A DNA stretch of 34,110 bases from an uncultured Planktomarina sp. (GTDB taxonomy: Bacteria > Pseudomonadota > Alphaproteobacteria > Rhodobacterales > Rhodobacteraceae), in NCBI GenBank assembly GCA_905182325.1, contig CAJJBD010000023.1, forward strand, positions 1 to 34,110, given 5' to 3'. The position numbers were made by a program, and so were the translations under genes. Within the stretch, counting starts at the first letter, position 1, and every line of letters begins with the position of its first letter. Below, in pieces: positions 24,240-30,187 of this stretch. A model generated the notes under the pieces. That model did no database searches. It worked only from the letters and a program-made list of their open reading frames with translations, and was not told the DNA's origin.

Positions 24240-24599
24240 TCATGCCGACCAGCCCGGATCAAATATTTGCGGAAACGTACATTCTGCCTTCCCAAGGTCT
24301 ACTCGCAGCCTAGCTTCATACGACCACGGATCGAAGTCGTCCTCTGCCGGAAGAACCTCACGTTCAAAAAGCCAGGACAACCGACCAGTATCTAGATTGC
24401 CACGTTCAAAAGAATTTTCGCCAAAGTAGTCAATCAAAGCATGCAAAAAAGCCTCATCAGCCCTTCGATCAGGTGGGCGCCTATCCGCGTAACGTTCTCG
24501 ACGAATGATTTTTGTTGCCCCTTTTTTACTTGCCCGCCGGATAGTGAATTGAAAATCCGTTCCTGTAAGCCGGCCAGGAAACCCACGGTGCTTTTCCAT
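24240..24599 (-). CDS. Uncharacterised 119-aa protein between pccB and pccA
   Basis: I do not recognise this protein. It has no signal peptide or membrane helix. The N-terminal half is strongly basic (RRASKKGATKIIRRERYADRR-like segments around residues 20-45), followed by a helical FLHALIDYFGE (about 52-62) and an acidic, aromatic C-terminal part with DFDPWSYEARLRVDLG. The ATG at 24599 overlaps the stop of an upstream 34-codon frame (TGATG), which could supply translational coupling, as no Shine-Dalgarno precedes it; a GTG at 24602 is in frame. Its place between the two carboxylase subunits suggests an accessory role for the enzyme, but that is only context. Confidence 0.7.
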   Translation of the reverse strand: MEKHRGFPGRLTGTDFQFTIRRASKKGATKIIRRERYADRRPPDRRADEAFLHALIDYFGENSFERGNLDTGRLSWLFEREVLPAEDDFDPWSYEARLRVDLGKAECTFPQIFDPGWSA

Positions 24600-24703
24600 C
24601 ACAGGAATTTTTTCAAAGCGAGAGACGGGTCATAGCTTTTCGAAATATCTTTAGCGTTCCAACTATCAATATCCACATATTTTTTACAAAGGTATATTAT
24701 CAT
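24599..24703 (-). CDS. Candidate 34-codon ORF linking pccB to the 119-aa gene
   Basis: ATG at 24703 lies inside the last codons of pccB (20-nt overlap) and the TGA shares its A with the ATG of the next gene (TGATG). The peptide starts [19 protein letters not shown] and ends ALKKFL. GGA lies about 6 nt upstream of the ATG; an internal GTG would give 25 residues. The tight joins on both sides favour a real coupling ORF, but no family is recognised and it may only serve to carry ribosomes to the next start. Confidence 0.35.
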
Positions 24704-26216
24704 GCTTTTTCCATGGGTTTTTTAGGGATTTACCCCGAAGGCTTGCGAATGCCCTGCACACCCTACGACGGGTTGAACCAGGTATTATAACTTCATCAAT
24801 AAAACCCTTTTCAGCAGCTATAAATGGGTTAGCAAATCGCTCTTCATAGTCTGCTGTGTGTTGAGTAATTTTTTCCTGATTATTAAGAGCCGCCCTATGA
24901 ATGATCTCTGTTGCACCTTTAGCTCCCATTACGGCAATCTCAGCTGTCGGCCAAGCATAGTTAAAATCCCCGCGCAAGTGCTTAGAGGCCATTACGTCAT
25001 ACGCCCCCCCATAAGCTTTGCGAGTAATCACTGTCACCTTTGGAACTGTAGCTTCACCATAGGCAAACAAAAGCTTTGCGCCATGTTTGATAACCCCACC
25101 AAATTCTTGGCTGGTGCCCGGTAAGAATCCAGGTACGTCAACGAGCGTTAAGATAGGAATTTCAAATGCATCACAAAACCGTACAAAACGAGCCGCTTTT
25201 CTACTCGCATCAATATCTAAACATCCAGCCAACACCGTGGGCTGATTGGCGACAACACCCACCGTTGAACCCTCCATACGAATAAATCCAGTGAGTATGT
25301 TCTTGGCAAAATCTTCCTGAATTTCATAGAAATCGCTTTCATCAGAAACTTTTAGAATGAGCTCTTTCATATCATAAGGCTGATTTGGATTTTGTGGAAT
25401 AAGTGTATCTAAACTTGCCTCCACCCGAGAGGGGTCATCAAAAAATGGTCGTACCGGCGGCTTTTGCCGATTATTCAAAGGCAAGAAATCTATAAGCCGC
25501 CGCACCTCTGTGAGGGCAATAACATCATTTTCAAAAGCCCCGTCAGCTACCGAAGATTTTTTTGTATGTGTGGACGCACCACCCAATTCTTCTGCTGTGA
25601 CAATTTCATTTGTAACTGTTTTTACAACGTCAGGGCCAGTAACAAACATATAGCTACTATCCTTAACCATGAAAATGAAATCAGTCATTGCAGGCGAGTA
25701 TACTGCTCCACCTGCGCACGGACCCATAATGACACTAATCTGTGGTACGACACCTGATGCCATTACGTTGCGCTGAAATACTTCGGCATATCCTGCTAGG
25801 GATGCGACACCCTCCTGGATACGGGCACCTCCTGAGTCATTCAATCCTATAACTGGGGCGCCATTCTGCATCGCCATATCCATAATTTTACAAATTTTTT
25901 CAGCATGTGTTTCAGAAAGGGAGCCACCAAATACAGTAAAGTCTTGACTATAAACGTAAATCATTCTGCCATTAATTGTACCCCAACCGGTTACGACACC
26001 ATCACCTGGGAATTGTTGTTCATCCATGCCAAAATCAACACAACGGTGCGCTTTGAACATATCAAATTCTTCAAAGCTGTCATCATCAAGAAGTAAGTCA
26101 ACACGCTCACGTGCTGTAAGCTTCCCCTTGGCATGCTGGGCATCAATTCGGTTTTGCCCGCCACCCATGCGTGCGACGCCTCGACGCGCTTCTAGTTCTG
26201 TTAAAATTTTATTCAT
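24684..26216 (-). CDS. pccB: Propionyl-CoA carboxylase beta subunit (carboxyltransferase)
   Basis: Moves the carboxyl group from biotin on PccA to propionyl-CoA. The 510-aa protein has two crotonase-fold halves. The first contains [21 protein letters not shown] at the N-terminus and [16 protein letters not shown]. The second contains [31 protein letters not shown] and [21 protein letters not shown]. All are standard for PccB. GAGG is 8 nt before ATG 26216. It starts the minus-strand propionyl-CoA block. Rhodobacteraceae often have a divergent regulator gene beyond this start; here that side is occupied by gene fragments and no intact regulator is seen. Confidence 0.96.
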
Positions 26217-26332
26217 GATATCACCCTCGTTCTTTATTCATATCCCCGAAACGTTAGAAAGCGAAGAATAAATTAGAATGTTAATATACTAGCTGTTGAA
26301 AAGTAAGGCGTTTAAGTCTGTTGAATCCTTGT

Positions 26333-26533
26333 TCATACAAAAATTATATAGTTAAGTTTTTTTGAGGTTTCAGGATTTAGGACAAGACGACTAACAATAT
26401 TACCAGCCACTAGATCATTTAGCGCCTCTGCCGCTTGATCCAAAGAGTACGTGGCCAACGGAATAGACAAATTCATAACGTTTTGAACGAACTTTAAAAG
26501 TTCCTGGAACTCTTCCAGTGTTCCAACATATGA
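26333..26533 (-). pseudogene. C-terminal remnant of a zinc-type alcohol dehydrogenase
   Basis: The minus strand encodes 66 residues ending in TGA at 26333: YVGTLEEFQELL, IPLATYSLDQAAEALNDL and GNIVSRLVLNP. This is the last part of a medium-chain (MDR) alcohol dehydrogenase. There is no start codon and a TGA lies immediately upstream, so the rest of the gene (zinc sites, nucleotide-binding fold) is gone. The last residues after LNP look like drift or extension. It abuts the DUF1810 piece within a few bases, marking a rearrangement joint near 26534. Confidence 0.75.
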
Positions 26534-26539
26534 TCAAAT

Positions 26540-26647
26540 ATGATGCTTGGGTACAGTGAACGAGCAGGGAATTATGGTATTGATACAGTTAAAGAGGCTA
26601 AAGCATTTATTTCCCATCCTACTTTATCAGCTACTACCTGCTGGGCT
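26540..26647 (+). pseudogene. Fragment resembling DUF1810
   Basis: The plus strand from 26540 reads GYSERAGNYGIDTVKEAKAF followed by ISHPTL. The pattern YGI-x4-EA-x-AF-xx-HP-x-L matches the middle of DUF1810 proteins (about 140 aa), where residues Y-I-x4-EA-x-AYL-x-HPxLG are typical. Only about 30 residues of resemblance remain. The frame then runs antisense into the reductase piece, so both ends of the domain are missing. The identification rests on one motif. Confidence 0.5.
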
Positions 26648-26655
26648 AGGCTAAC
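26648..26655. repeat. 8-bp direct repeat, copy 1, at the 3' edge of the reductase fragment
   Basis: AGGCTAAC, covering the stop codon of the ferredoxin-NADP reductase piece. The identical copy at 27387-27394 marks the other edge of that piece. Confidence 0.5.
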
Positions 26656-27392
26656 CCACAAAGGCCTTCTCAATTACATAGTCACCTGGATCAGAATTAG
26701 CACCCTCGCGTAGCCCATAATGTTCGAGAATACGTTTCGTGTCAGTGTTCAACCCCATAGATCCACAAACCATCGCGCGGTCGTTGGTGGCGTTGAAGTT
26801 GGTAATGTTTAGGTTTTCAAATAAACTTCCATCTTCTAGCGCTGTGGTGATACGGCCCATTTTAGCCGAGGTTTCGCGGGTAGTAGTCGGGTAGTAAAGC
26901 AATTTATGCTGCGCTTCTTCGCCCACTAAAATATCATTTTTAGTCTCTGCTATCAGCTCTTCGCCAAATTTGAGGTCTGCCAAGTCCCGGCAGGTATGGG
27001 TTAAAACCACCTAATTAAAACGCTCATAAGTTTCTGGCTCACGCAGTAGAGAGGCGAATGGCGCGATGCCTGTGCCAGTTGAGAAAAACCACATACGGTT
27101 GGCTCGTGTCAAAGCGTCATGCACCAGTGTGCCTACAGATTTCTGCTTCAAGATCAACTGGACGCCCACTTTGATATGCTGTAATTTGCTCGTAAGCAGG
27201 CCATTATCAACTTTGATAGAATAAAATTGTAAGGTTTCATCCCATGCTGGTGAGGAGATGGAATAAGCGCGTAGCAACAGTTTTTGCTTACCAGTTTCGG
27301 TGTGTGGATCACCCAAAAGGCCAATCATAACAAATTCACCTGAGCGAAACCGCATGGATGCAGGCCGTGTCACGCGAAACCGAAACAGGCTA
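26651..27392 (-). pseudogene. fpr: Ferredoxin/flavodoxin-NADP reductase, 5'-truncated and interrupted by an in-frame amber codon
   Basis: The minus strand encodes a recognisable Fpr: LFRFRVTRPASMRFRSGEFV, LLRAYSISSPAWDE (FAD site), STGTGIAPFASLLREPETYE (NADP site), YYPTTTRE, MVCGSMGLN and the C-terminal VIEKAFVG. About 25-30 N-terminal residues are missing before LFRFR. A TAG at 27013-27011 interrupts ERFN and VVLTHTCRD without a frame change; homologs carry a residue such as Lys there, and AAG to TAG needs one base change. Apart from these lesions about 245 codons remain intact, so the decay looks recent. Read-through cannot rescue it, because the N-terminus is also lost. A working copy is presumably elsewhere. 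Confidence 0.85.
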
Positions 27393-27394
27393 AC
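27387..27394. repeat. 8-bp direct repeat, copy 2, at the 5' edge of the reductase fragment
   Basis: AGGCTAAC again, exactly where resemblance to Fpr begins. The flanking bases of the two copies differ, so the repeat is limited to eight bases. Confidence 0.5.
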
Positions 27395-27400
27395 AGAACC

Positions 27401-27574
27401 TTCAGTTCAGACAGTTACGCACACTATCTTCACCACAAATACTTTGAGTGTAACTACGCAGATGGAATTCTGCCCTTGGATAAATGGTTTGGCACATTCC
27501 ATGATGGAAGCGAGGAAGCACAAGAACGTCTAACGCATAGACTTAAGGAAAAAACTAAGAAAGCCACAAACTAA
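27401..27574 (+). pseudogene. C-terminal remnant of a sterol desaturase / fatty acid hydroxylase
   Basis: The plus strand encodes about 57 residues up to TAA at 27572: SYAHYLHHKYFECNYADG, then PLDKWFGTFHDG and a charged tail. YLHHKYFExNY and DxWFGTFHDG are the conserved C-terminal iron-ligand and end motifs of the fatty acid hydroxylase superfamily. All the membrane helices and earlier His boxes are absent and there is no start codon. Its 5' joint with the antisense reductase piece is near 27395-27400. It ends 5 bp from the integrase stop codon. Confidence 0.8.
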
Positions 27575-27579
27575 ATGAT

Positions 27580-28731
27580 CTAGTCTTCAATCTCTAACAT
27601 CCACTTATACTTGAGCCTATCATCATATCCACTGCCGTAGCGACTACCCACGCCAGCCGTACTCCATCCACCGAGAGCGTCAATCATATCCGATGGGCAT
27701 TGAACCTCCCGCAATCGATCCCGGAAACTGTGCCTGAAGGAGTGAACCACACAATCTTCTGGCACCCTTTTGCTGAGCCACTTATTAAGTGACCCACTCG
27801 CAGAGTTCGCTTTGACTGCCGTATCATTACAGTAGCGAGGAAAAGCGAATTGTCCCGATGCATTTGTTACTACTCGCTGAGCCGCCCATAGGCTGTTGCC
27901 TACTAAAGGAAGTGGTCGTGCACTGCCCTTAGTCCTGAGACGTCGCCAAGGATGGGGTTTGATATCAAGGTAAGGGTTTTCCGCATCCAGCTTTATGTCA
28001 TTAACCAAAAGCCCACATGCCTCAGACAAACGCATGCCACTGTCGCTAATCAAGGCTATCAACCAGCGTTGGTCATCGTCGTAGTCACAGCATTCAGCTT
28101 GGACGTTCCTGATATCTGACAATGGAATAGGTTGCCTCTTAGTTTCGAGGTCGTCCTCTGGGATAAACACACCACCAAAGGGATTAGAGAGATGCAGCCC
28201 ATGCTCTGAGATGCATAGATTTATGACAGCCTTAACGGTTGAGAATACTCTGCGCACAGATGAAGAGGACAAACCCTTGGCTAGCAAGTGGTCTCTAAAA
28301 TCAGCACCATTCCGCAGGGATAGGTCCCCAATGGTAACGTTGCCAAGGCAGGCCGTGAGATAACGTTGGTTGCGCTCCGTGCATTTCCTAAAGTTATCAG
28401 TCTTTGCTGTACCCTTGAGACGTAAGTAGAGATCGAATCCATCAGAGATCAAAAAGTCATTTCTTGCACTGATAAAGTTTGCCCCAAAGACCACGGACCT
28501 TGGTTCTGGTGATTTAAAATCAAGCACCTCAAGACGCATTCGATCCCAGATATTCTCCAGCCTACTGGACAGCTCTAGGGACAGCCTGCTCGCCTTATCT
28601 GGGGACTTGGTATGAAGACATTTTACAAAGCGTGGGCTCTGGAACTGAACTTTAAGGCCCTGTGGGACACGACGCGTGTAGTAAAAGACATCACGTTTGG
28701 TGGTTAGGTAAAGTGGTTTTTGGTAACCCAT
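27580..28731 (-). CDS. Tyrosine recombinase (phage-type integrase, DUF6538 N-terminus)
   Basis: A site-specific recombinase of 383 aa. The N-terminus (YLTTKRDVFYYTRRVPQGLK) matches the DUF6538 arm-binding type, followed by a core-binding region (about 95-190). The catalytic set is complete: Arg234 in SGMRLSEACG, Lys268 in RTKGSAR, His330 and Arg333 in HSFRHSFRDR, Trp356 in GGWS and Tyr365 in SRYGSGY (Tyr369 is an alternative). It therefore looks functional although everything next to it is broken. I use ATG 28731; a GTG at 28740 adds three residues. Codon use appears GC-richer than its neighbours. Its start faces a tRNA-Leu-like att core 76 bp away. Confidence 0.9.
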   Translation of the reverse strand: MGYQKPLYLTTKRDVFYYTRRVPQGLKVQFQSPRFVKCLHTKSPDKASRLSLELSSRLENIWDRMRLEVLDFKSPEPRSVVFGANFISARNDFLISDGFDLYLRLKGTAKTDNFRKCTERNQRYLTACLGNVTIGDLSLRNGADFRDHLLAKGLSSSSVRRVFSTVKAVINLCISEHGLHLSNPFGGVFIPEDDLETKRQPIPLSDIRNVQAECCDYDDDQRWLIALISDSGMRLSEACGLLVNDIKLDAENPYLDIKPHPWRRLRTKGSARPLPLVGNSLWAAQRVVTNASGQFAFPRYCNDTAVKANSASGSLNKWLSKRVPEDCVVHSFRHSFRDRLREVQCPSDMIDALGGWSTAGVGSRYGSGYDDRLKYKWMLEIED

Positions 28732-28747
28732 GTGGTACACCCGTTTT

Positions 28748-28774
28748 CTTGCAAAGGTTTAAATTCCTTGCAAA
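28748..28774. repeat. Pair of direct repeats CTTGCAAA upstream of the integrase
   Basis: CTTGCAAA at 28748-28755 and again at 28767-28774, 19 bp apart, between the integrase start and the att-like core. Spaced short direct repeats here suit integrase arm-type or excisionase sites. Confidence 0.4.
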
Positions 28775-28806
28775 TTAGGTACTTGGATCATGGATCTTGG
28801 TTAAAG

Positions 28807-28823
28807 TGGTGCCCAGAAGAGGA
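28807..28823 (-). other. tRNA-Leu 3'-end-like attachment core (att)
   Basis: TGGTGCCCAGAAGAGGA on the plus strand is, reversed, a tRNA 3' end: T-stem half CCTCT, acceptor half TCTGGGC, discriminator A and CCA. It agrees with the ends of alphaproteobacterial tRNA-Leu genes that begin GCCCAGA. The match stops after 17 bp and no tRNA body follows, which is what an integration core left by a tRNA-targeting recombinase looks like. It lies 76 bp from the integrase start. Confidence 0.6.
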
Positions 28824-28829
28824 GGTTTG

Positions 28830-28856
28830 ATGTCAAATACACAAATATCGTGGTGA
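28830..28856 (+). other. 8-codon frame behind a perfect Shine-Dalgarno, next to the att core
   Basis: AGGAGG at 28820-28825, then 4 nt and an ATG encoding MSNTQISW before TGA. The ribosome site straddles the end of the att-like core. It may be the start of a gene cut off by recombination, a leader for the exporter at 28964, or chance. Confidence 0.25.
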
Positions 28857-28963
28857 CGTTGACTGTAGCAAACAAATAAAATTTGTACGTCAGTGTCCTT
28901 ATTGCGTAGGTTTTCTAATTTGCATCACTGGACAAGCCTCCAGAGCCTATATAGCCCTCTTTA

Positions 28964-30187
28964 ATGGATAATTTAGGCTCCTCAAAATTTCTCACTAATA
29001 CTACGCCGCCCAGTATGTTTACATTAGTCTGCCTAGCTGGAGTCGGCGCCTTAGCATTAAACATGCACCTGCCGTCGTTGCCAGCAATGGCTAATACCTT
29101 TGACGTTAGTTATTCCGCAACTACACTTTCAATAACATTATTTCTTGCAATGAATGCCATTTTTCAGATTTTTGTTGGACCATTATCAGACCGTTATGGA
29201 AGAAGGCCCATTGTTTTGGGATCATTGTTCATATTTTGTTTGAGTTCAGTAGGCTGTATCCTAGCGCCTAATTTTGAAATTTTTCTTATGTGTAGAGTCA
29301 TGCAAGCTGTTGTCGTGGCTGGACTTGTAATTTCACGTGCAGCGATCCGTGATTCCTACGGCCAAAATCAAGCAGCTTCTGTTTTGGGATATGTAACCAT
29401 GGGGATGGCAGTTCTTCCATTAATTGGTCCTGCTTTGGGAGGAGTATTAGAAGTGAAGTTTAGCTGGATCGCTAGTTTCTGGGTTTTGCTGGGAGTGGGG
29501 ATATTTGTATTTTTATTAACCTATTTTGACATGGGTGAAACAAACCGCCGCAAAACAAATTCGATGGCTGCACAATTTCGCTCCTATCCCGAACTTTTAA
29601 AAGCACGCCGGTTTTGGGGCTATAGCCTCACTGCAGCTTTTAGTGCAGGCGCATATTACGCCTACTTAGGGGGTGCTGCTTATATTGGACGTGAGGTATT
29701 TGCGCTCACGCCTGATATTTTGGGATTTTATATTGGAACACCTGTTATTGGGTATATCATTGGAAATGGGCTTTCCGGAAAGTTTTCTACGGCTCTTGGT
29801 ATAGATAAAATGGTTTTAATGGGTGCCATAGTAACTACATTTGGAATGGCTTTATGTGTGATCTTTTTCTTATTCACCAACCCAATTCCATTTTCATTTT
29901 TTAGCTGTGTGTGTCTCATGGGTTTAGGCAATGGCATGGTACTCCCAAATTCTAATGCAGGTATGATGTCCGTCAGACCTCATTTGGCAGGTTCAGCTTC
30001 CGGCATTGGAGGTACGATCAACACCGGTGGTGGAGCCATAATCGCCACTGGCACAGCCGCTTTGTTAACACCCGGTACAGGTGCCATGCCCTTAATTTTA
30101 ATTATGCTAGCCAGCTCTATAATGTCAATTATTACAATTGGATATGTATTTAAAAGGACCCTAGACTTAGAAGAATCTAATAGTTAG
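28964..30187 (+). CDS. MFS drug exporter, Bcr/CflA type
   Basis: A 407-aa inner-membrane proton-driven exporter with 12 hydrophobic helices. Signatures of the Bcr/CflA group are visible: MHLPSLPAMANTFDVS in the first helix, GPLSDRYGRRPIVLG after helix 2 (the MFS loop motif), CRVMQAVVVAG and LPLIGPALGGVLE. Members export drugs, sulfonamides, dipeptides or cysteine, and the sequence does not say which. ATG 28964 has only a weak ribosome site; an imperfect alternative is the Met at about codon 18. The upstream 223 bp carry the att-like core, so the gene sits at the edge of the integration region. It converges with betB. Confidence 0.9.
   Translation: MDNLGSSKFLTNTTPPSMFTLVCLAGVGALALNMHLPSLPAMANTFDVSYSATTLSITLFLAMNAIFQIFVGPLSDRYGRRPIVLGSLFIFCLSSVGCILAPNFEIFLMCRVMQAVVVAGLVISRAAIRDSYGQNQAASVLGYVTMGMAVLPLIGPALGGVLEVKFSWIASFWVLLGVGIFVFLLTYFDMGETNRRKTNSMAAQFRSYPELLKARRFWGYSLTAAFSAGAYYAYLGGAAYIGREVFALTPDILGFYIGTPVIGYIIGNGLSGKFSTALGIDKMVLMGAIVTTFGMALCVIFFLFTNPIPFSFFSCVCLMGLGNGMVLPNSNAGMMSVRPHLAGSASGIGGTINTGGGAIIATGTAALLTPGTGAMPLILIMLASSIMSIITIGYVFKRTLDLEESNS

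What the first reader, a model, noticed from the sequence alone, without database searches (positions are those of the whole stretch)
26217..28830. Integration hot spot made of four gene stumps plus an intact recombinase
Between pccB and the MFS gene, four unrelated truncated genes lie end to end on alternating strands with joints only a few bases wide: an alcohol dehydrogenase tail, a DUF1810 piece, a ferredoxin-NADP reductase and a fatty acid hydroxylase tail. An apparently complete tyrosine recombinase and a tRNA-like att core follow. Serial integration and imprecise deletion explain this better than decay of one operon. An active capture mechanism that leaves C-terminal stumps is possible but unproven.
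Basis: partly seen in the sequence, partly recalled or inferred. Interest (0 to 1): 0.75.

Follow-up and report, generated by a model that had tools for sequence, protein, structure and literature searches.

The report
Broken mobile element beside intact recombinase
Between two ordinary genes this bacterium carries one 2.6-kb patch of leftover gene ends plus an intact DNA recombinase, and relatives of that recombinase sit in mobile elements built from mirror-image halves joined at the end of a tRNA gene.

Summary
The stumps and the intact tyrosine recombinase are real; the hot spot is not. In 18 of 19 other genomes of the genus pccB and the MFS gene could be compared, and in all 18 they lie 140-217 bp apart; the 19th was untestable. 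Two close relatives show the empty site, so the window holds one insert of about 2.6 kb. Two of its joints are older than its arrival: DUF1810|FNR recurs at 95% identity in Rhodobacteraceae bacterium ASP10-04a (backbone 69-78%), and hydroxylase|recombinase recurs elsewhere in that genome. The recombinase (DUF6538 + Phage_integrase) belongs to an alphaproteobacterial clade that sits at tRNA genes. In 34 of 39 testable relatives, inverted repeats of 60-344 bp bracket the integrase gene; beside a tRNA they include its 3' end. Ten elements also have a cargo module with its own inverted repeats (287-3183 bp), and cargo occurs in both orientations. The window keeps integrase, one arm and a tRNA-Leu(CAG) core, but no second arm and no tRNA: a relic. 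How it reached pccB-MFS is unknown. My searches of an open-licence library found no description of this design.

The parts
24684..26216 (-). pccB, left backbone gene
   Evidence: ORF; same neighbour of the MFS gene in 18 of 18 testable genomes
26217..26294 (.). left backbone flank, homologous to the empty sites of G014 and G016 up to 26294 / 26292
26295..28899 (.). insert of about 2.6 kb (ends uncertain by a few bases)
   Evidence: empty sites in G014 (L073 7290/7297) and G016 (L074 837/844)
26336..26533 (-). alcohol dehydrogenase-like C-terminal tail (weak identification)
26540..26630 (+). internal DUF1810 fragment, joined to the 3' flank of FNR as in G005:C38
   Evidence: Pfam E 7e-5; L071 match 86.8% over 38 aa; alignment
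26651..27392 (-). ferredoxin-NADP reductase pseudogene: N-terminus missing, TAA at 27011-27013
27392..27574 (+). fatty acid hydroxylase C-terminal 60 codons
27580..28740 (-). complete tyrosine recombinase, DUF6538 + Phage_integrase
28741..28805 (.). arm A: upstream arm of the integrase, 91.6% (83 bp with core) to L141
28806..28822 (-). orphan core = 3' end of tRNA-Leu(CAG) plus one base, read on the - strand
28823..28899 (.). 77 bp of unknown origin between core and right junction
   Evidence: no convincing match in 19 other genomes of the genus
28900..28963 (.). right backbone flank
28964..30187 (+). MFS transporter, right backbone gene

Best explanation
The insert is one piece of mosaic foreign DNA that arrived once, in this lineage, between pccB and the MFS gene. 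It is a relic of an integrase module whose relatives sit at tRNA 3' ends. In intact relatives the module reads tRNA - core - arm A - integrase - a slot with none to a few genes - arm A inverted - core inverted; in some a cargo module with its own inverted arms, and a third, direct core, follow. In the window the integrase, one arm A and one core remain; the slot holds gene remains (hydroxylase end, FNR pseudogene, DUF1810 piece, ADH-like tail); the second arm is lost. Shown: a single insert; two pre-existing joints; an intact recombinase gene; the clade and its architecture. Inferred: that the stumps are former slot contents, that deletions such as the joint at 27392 trimmed them, and that the piece came in by a route other than recombination at its own core. 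With one core left the recombinase can hardly excise this insert; it might still act on other cores of the genome.
For: Empty sites in two close relatives and in all 18 testable genomes. DUF1810|FNR joint shared with G005:C38 (95% over 734 bp); hydroxylase|recombinase joint shared with G005:C2 (78% over 605 bp); backbone shared with G005 only 69-78%. Integrase domains and invariant residues. Arm A and core as in L141. Nearest relatives L141 and G005:C2 have one gene behind the integrase, then the inverted arm. Inverted repeats around the integrase in 34 of 39 testable relatives.
Against: No relative with the whole row was found. The window has no second arm and no second core, so its membership rests on integrase, arm and core. 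In G005:C38 the FNR points the other way relative to the nearby arm than it does relative to the integrase here. The ADH-like tail has no known source. 5 of 39 testable relatives lack the inverted repeats. The entry mechanism is not shown.
Confidence: 0.65

Rival explanations
1. One reading: pccB-MFS is an integration hot spot where elements came and went and left stumps.
For: Several unrelated fragments with narrow joints lie together beside a recombinase.
Against: All 18 testable genomes of the genus have an empty gap. Two joints pre-exist elsewhere. No core at the junctions or between the pieces.
Confidence: 0.1
2. The recombinase itself inserted the piece at a secondary, non-tRNA site, and later changes hid the core at the junction.
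For: Intact integrase and core. Little or no target loss. Other orphan cores without a recognisable tRNA exist, e.g. L141.
Against: The core is 77 bp inside the right junction, and no core-like sequence was found at the left.
Confidence: 0.14
3. Assembly chimera.
For: Draft genome of 52 contigs, 78% complete; donor-like DNA is 95% identical to another species.
Against: The insert is flanked on both sides by backbone matching G014 (84.5% left; 78% and 84% right, against its two MFS copies) and G016 (84.8% and 82.1%); several independent misjoins within 2.6 kb would be needed; the FNR copy has its own stop and 5% divergence.
Confidence: 0.05
4. An active mechanism captures gene 3' ends and leaves C-terminal stumps.
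For: Three of the pieces keep gene 3' ends, on alternating strands, beside a recombinase.
Against: No repeated site separates the pieces. The DUF1810 piece is internal. FNR keeps nearly its whole length but has a stop. ORFs in the slot of several relatives look complete (by inspection only).
Confidence: 0.04

Closest known systems
tRNA-targeted tyrosine-recombinase integrative elements and genomic islands (P4-type islands are the textbook case, recalled)
   Same: Phage_integrase-type recombinase, core equal to a tRNA 3' end, relatives directly downstream of tRNAs.
   Different: Relatives have an inverted core and 60-344 bp inverted arms around the integrase; the window has no tRNA and only one core.
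Tycheposons (passages of PMC10872708 seen; the original description not held, recalled)
   Same: tRNA-bordered, tyrosine recombinase, cargo in a marine bacterium.
   Different: In those passages no inverted repeats around the recombinase are described; the recombinases were not compared here.
Integrase-less cassettes with attachment sites (CIME- or integron-like, recalled)
   Same: Relatives G009 and G018 hold direct repeats of about 80-140 bp centred on the same core with genes and no integrase between.
   Different: Not seen in the window itself; no attC test was made.
Yeast 2-micron plasmid (recalled)
   Same: By inference, a circle formed by core1 x core3 would carry two identical attachment sites in inverted orientation.
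   Different: Bacterial, integrates at tRNAs, different recombinase; no circle was observed.
Shufflons (recalled)
   Same: Gene ends on alternating strands near a tyrosine recombinase.
   Different: No recombination sites between the pieces; the pieces are unrelated genes.

Membership tests
tRNA-targeted tyrosine-recombinase integrative element | complete tyrosine recombinase | tested here: met
   386 aa, Phage_integrase E 9e-11, invariant R/H/R/W/Y
tRNA-targeted tyrosine-recombinase integrative element | core identical to a tRNA 3' end of the host | tested here: met
   28806-28822 matches tRNA-Leu(CAG) at G000:C19
tRNA-targeted tyrosine-recombinase integrative element | located at the tRNA gene | tested here: not met
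   no tRNA in the window
tRNA-targeted tyrosine-recombinase integrative element | second core bounding the element | tested here: not met
   no second core with 5 or fewer mismatches in 26217-28962
double-inverted-repeat element described here | integrase of the clade with arm A and core at its start | tested here: met
double-inverted-repeat element described here | inverted second arm and core behind the integrase | tested here: not met
   none in the window; so the window is a relic, not an intact member
double-inverted-repeat element described here | cargo module with its own inverted repeats | tested here: not met
   no such repeat in 26210-28970
Integron | IntI-type integrase and attC sites | not tested
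   Pfam shows DUF6538 + Phage_integrase; no attC search was made
Shufflon | recombination sites between the exchanged segments | tested here: not met

The most novel reading that the evidence does not exclude
The window is a broken copy of an apparently undescribed class of alphaproteobacterial mobile elements made of two mirror-ended modules, integrase and cargo, that share tRNA-derived cores in the order forward - inverted - forward. The recombinase would insert and excise the whole at a tRNA, flip the cargo module between the second and third core, and let modules be exchanged among elements. An excised circle would carry two identical attachment sites in inverted orientation. The slot behind the integrase gathers genes, whose remains are the stumps seen here.
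Probability: 0.5. Interest if true: 0.8.

Novelty: new variant of a known kind. Interest (0 to 1): 0.58.

Why it matters
The stump patch itself is ordinary genome debris. It matters because its recombinase leads to a design that departs from the usual picture of tRNA islands (two direct cores, recalled): a copy of the tRNA end, inverted, sits behind the integrase and matches the resident tRNA. In one genome (G159) two integrase modules, 92.7% identical over 1415 aligned bases, sit at two different tRNA-Thr genes, and in each the inner and outer core agree with each other and with the local tRNA. That suggests recurrent exchange between inverted sites, by the recombinase or by gene conversion, and the cargo is found in both orientations. 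Cargo includes a type I restriction system in Ruegeria sp. TM1040 and proteins matching Mza defence models in L226. If the recombinase drives this, inversion, module exchange and amplification models become directly testable in cultured marine bacteria.

Tried and rejected
Recombination sites between stumps: none found. A 14-nt perfect inverted repeat, 26409-26422 / 27571-27584, was set aside as probable chance (my own rough estimate is 1-2% for a stretch of this size). Target-site duplication: at best a 5-bp near-match at the two junctions, read by eye. Source of the ADH-like tail: none in the genus. Viral contigs: no relative, with six narrow peptide patterns. Phage records: 2, at 31.6%. Plasmid records: 9, of which one covers at least 80% of the query, Ruegeria sp. 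TM1040 at 40.3%. Selection on the integrase: dN 0.188 with saturated dS against L141, consistent with constraint but no proof for the window copy. I first read the scattered integrase N-terminal pieces (L071, L077, L081, L082) as decayed integrases; since the arm of L094 reaches into the integrase start, leftover second arms are as likely; this is inference. Frequent flipping of the integrase module is disfavoured: 28 arm-bearing loci (and L221) have the integrase start next to the tRNA; one, L080, has the reverse and lies at a contig end.

Full report
What is there. The window is contig G000:C23 of a draft genome of 1.90 Mb in 52 contigs, 78% complete. Between pccB (24684-26216) and an MFS gene (28964-30187) lie an ADH-like tail, a DUF1810 piece, an FNR pseudogene, a fatty acid hydroxylase tail, a complete tyrosine recombinase and a tRNA-like core. 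The ADH label is weak. The FNR lacks its N-terminus and has an in-frame stop at 27011-27013; the genome has another FNR at C43, 69% identical in DNA and 78% in protein to this one.

One insert, not a hot spot. G014 joins window 26294 to 28907 with 6 bases between; G016 joins 26292 to 28894, also with 6 bases between. Alignment and string positions put the insert at about 26295-28899, with little or no loss of target. Of 19 other genomes of the genus, 18 have pccB and this MFS gene on one locus (19 loci, as G003 has two), with 140-217 bp between the aligned ends; G008 could not be tested because its contig ends in the MFS gene. G014 carries the MFS gene twice in tandem, but still directly beside pccB.

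Joints older than the insert. From 26545 the DUF1810-FNR piece matches G005:C38 at 95% over 734 bp, including the DUF1810|FNR joint; the match stops at a masked stretch of G005, so its far end is not known there. The pccB-MFS backbone shared with G005 is 69-78% identical. G005 is Rhodobacteraceae bacterium ASP10-04a: its contig C2 and LAQD01000022.1 have the same length, 90,003, and the same match. The hydroxylase|recombinase joint recurs in G005:C2, 78% over 605 bp. The FNR|hydroxylase joint at 27392 shows 1 bp of overlap between the two parents. The whole row was not found in another genome.

The recombinase. Pfam gives DUF6538 + Phage_integrase, and R237, H333, R336, W359 and Y368 are invariant in nine aligned relatives. 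Many relatives in the genus start about 60-150 bp downstream of a tRNA 3' end. The window core is the tRNA-Leu(CAG) 3' end plus one base, but no tRNA is there and no second core with 5 or fewer mismatches.

An architecture found on the way. Behind the integrase, relatives carry an inverted copy of the tRNA end, as the tip of long, often perfect inverted repeats. One search examined 71 loci, the window being one. 39 have at least 38.5% identity to the window integrase and at least 1.4 kb downstream: 34 have inverted repeats of 60-344 bp (77-100% identity) around the integrase, 5 have none (L098, L187, L228, L203, L206). Two of the 34 are poor (L092, 77%, 2.5 kb away; L222, 79%). Of 11 less similar loci, 1 has them (L218, 37.8%). 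Of 20 loci with less downstream sequence, 10 have them. Sources: genus (22 of 61 genomes with a match at E 0.001, relatives beyond the genus included), family (23 of 295 at E 1e-30), class (10 of 385 at E 1e-40), TM1040 and L141. Not every hit of those calls was fetched, second integrases inside a locus were not counted, and some integrases are partial or broken. A phylum sample gave 5 of 398 genomes at E 1e-50, all of this family or class, the own genome included. Of three loci new there, one (L233) has the repeats (113 bp, 90%) and two (L235; L236, a partial integrase) do not.

Cores track the tRNA. One search found an arm of at least 60 bp together with a tRNA at the integrase start in 28 loci (L182, with a 39-bp repeat that lacks the tRNA end, was dropped). 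In 25 of the 28 the inner core equals the resident tRNA end over the 9-16 bases compared; L215 and L218 differ at one base, and L227 is offset by a gap. Fourteen tRNA kinds occur, tRNA-SeC included. Telling pairs: L170 (Thr-CGT) and L186 (Thr-TGT) of one genome, 92.7% identical, and L091 (Ser-GGA) and L093 (Ser-TGA), 91.7% identical; in each element both cores agree with its own tRNA. Other loci show only a tRNA 3' fragment at the core (L214, L226, L200) or no recognisable tRNA.

Cargo modules. Ten loci have a second pair of inverted repeats starting at the inner core: 1148 bp at 100% in Ruegeria sp. TM1040 (L164; the same BRO protein accession is annotated at both ends), 3183 bp at 100% in L214, and 287-767 bp at 95-100% in L091, L093, L094, L097, L099, L223, L226 and L227. 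A direct third core of 16-17 nt was found at 5.6-9.0 kb in 5 of the 9 arm-bearing loci. L091, L093 and L094 (G011) and L097 (G004) carry related cargo: L091 and L094 agree in orientation, L093 and L097 agree, and the two pairs are opposite (summed matches of 7.2-7.9 kb in reverse and 0 forward in the three crosswise comparisons made). L226 holds proteins matching MzaB-E models and a DNA methylase; L214 holds two RTX-repeat proteins.

How it may work. Inferred: core1 x core3 would excise the whole; core2 x core3 would flip the cargo; agreement of core2 with the tRNA needs repeated exchange between inverted copies, by the recombinase or by gene conversion. No recombination product was observed. 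Against frequent flipping of the integrase module, 28 loci and L221 have the integrase start next to the tRNA and one, L080, has the reverse.

Fit of the window. It keeps arm A and core at the integrase start, as in L141 (91.6% over 83 bp). L141 and G005:C2 carry one gene behind the integrase and then the inverted arm. In the window that position holds the stumps and the second arm is lost, so I read the insert as a trimmed integrase module. What brought it to pccB-MFS is unknown.

Literature. Search listings only. DUF6538 occurs in none of the library's papers. Passages by term were seen in PMC8138268, PMC10872708 and PMC10675870 ('integrase' and 'genomic island' occur 0 times in its main text). 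None of what I saw describes an integrase bracketed by inverted repeats that end in the tRNA sequence. The library holds openly licensed papers only, so a description elsewhere is possible.

Noticed in passing
L164:11905-24674 (Ruegeria sp. TM1040 megaplasmid NC_008043.1): Finished example of the double-inverted-repeat element at tRNA-Phe: 85-bp arms (100%) around the integrase, 1148-bp arms (100%) around a type I restriction system.
   Followed up: yes
L149:19-5085, L146:6554-8115, L150:2704-11759: Direct repeats of about 80-140 bp centred on the tRNA-Leu(CAG) core with genes but no integrase between them: cassette-like tandem units (genes of L150 not listed).
   Followed up: partly
L078:8059-8138 and L071:5487-6296 (G005): In G005 the FNR locus near tRNA-Asp keeps only the last 18 codons or so, while an apparently intact FNR lies on another contig beside a DUF1810 fragment: an apparent gene relocation.
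   Followed up: partly
L091, L093, L094, L097: Related cargo modules of about 6-7 kb occur in opposite orientations between their inverted repeats.
   Followed up: partly
L080:1-1473 (G018:C15): The only arm-bearing locus found with the integrase reversed relative to its tRNA (Leu-GAG), with 108-bp perfect arms; it begins at a contig end, so it could be an assembly effect.
   Followed up: partly
L061 and L042 (G014:C124): Tandem duplication of the MFS gene next to pccB in G014.
   Followed up: no
L082:7514-8825, L083:8545-8706, L084:3-482 (own genome, contigs C46, C26, C12): Further integrase fragments of the family in the window's own genome, in the same fetched stretches as tRNA-Lys, tRNA-Asn and tRNA-Leu(GAG) genes.
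   Followed up: partly
window 24240-24602: A 120-aa ORF (-) upstream of the 674-aa carboxylase-like ORF and downstream of pccB; not identified.
   Followed up: no
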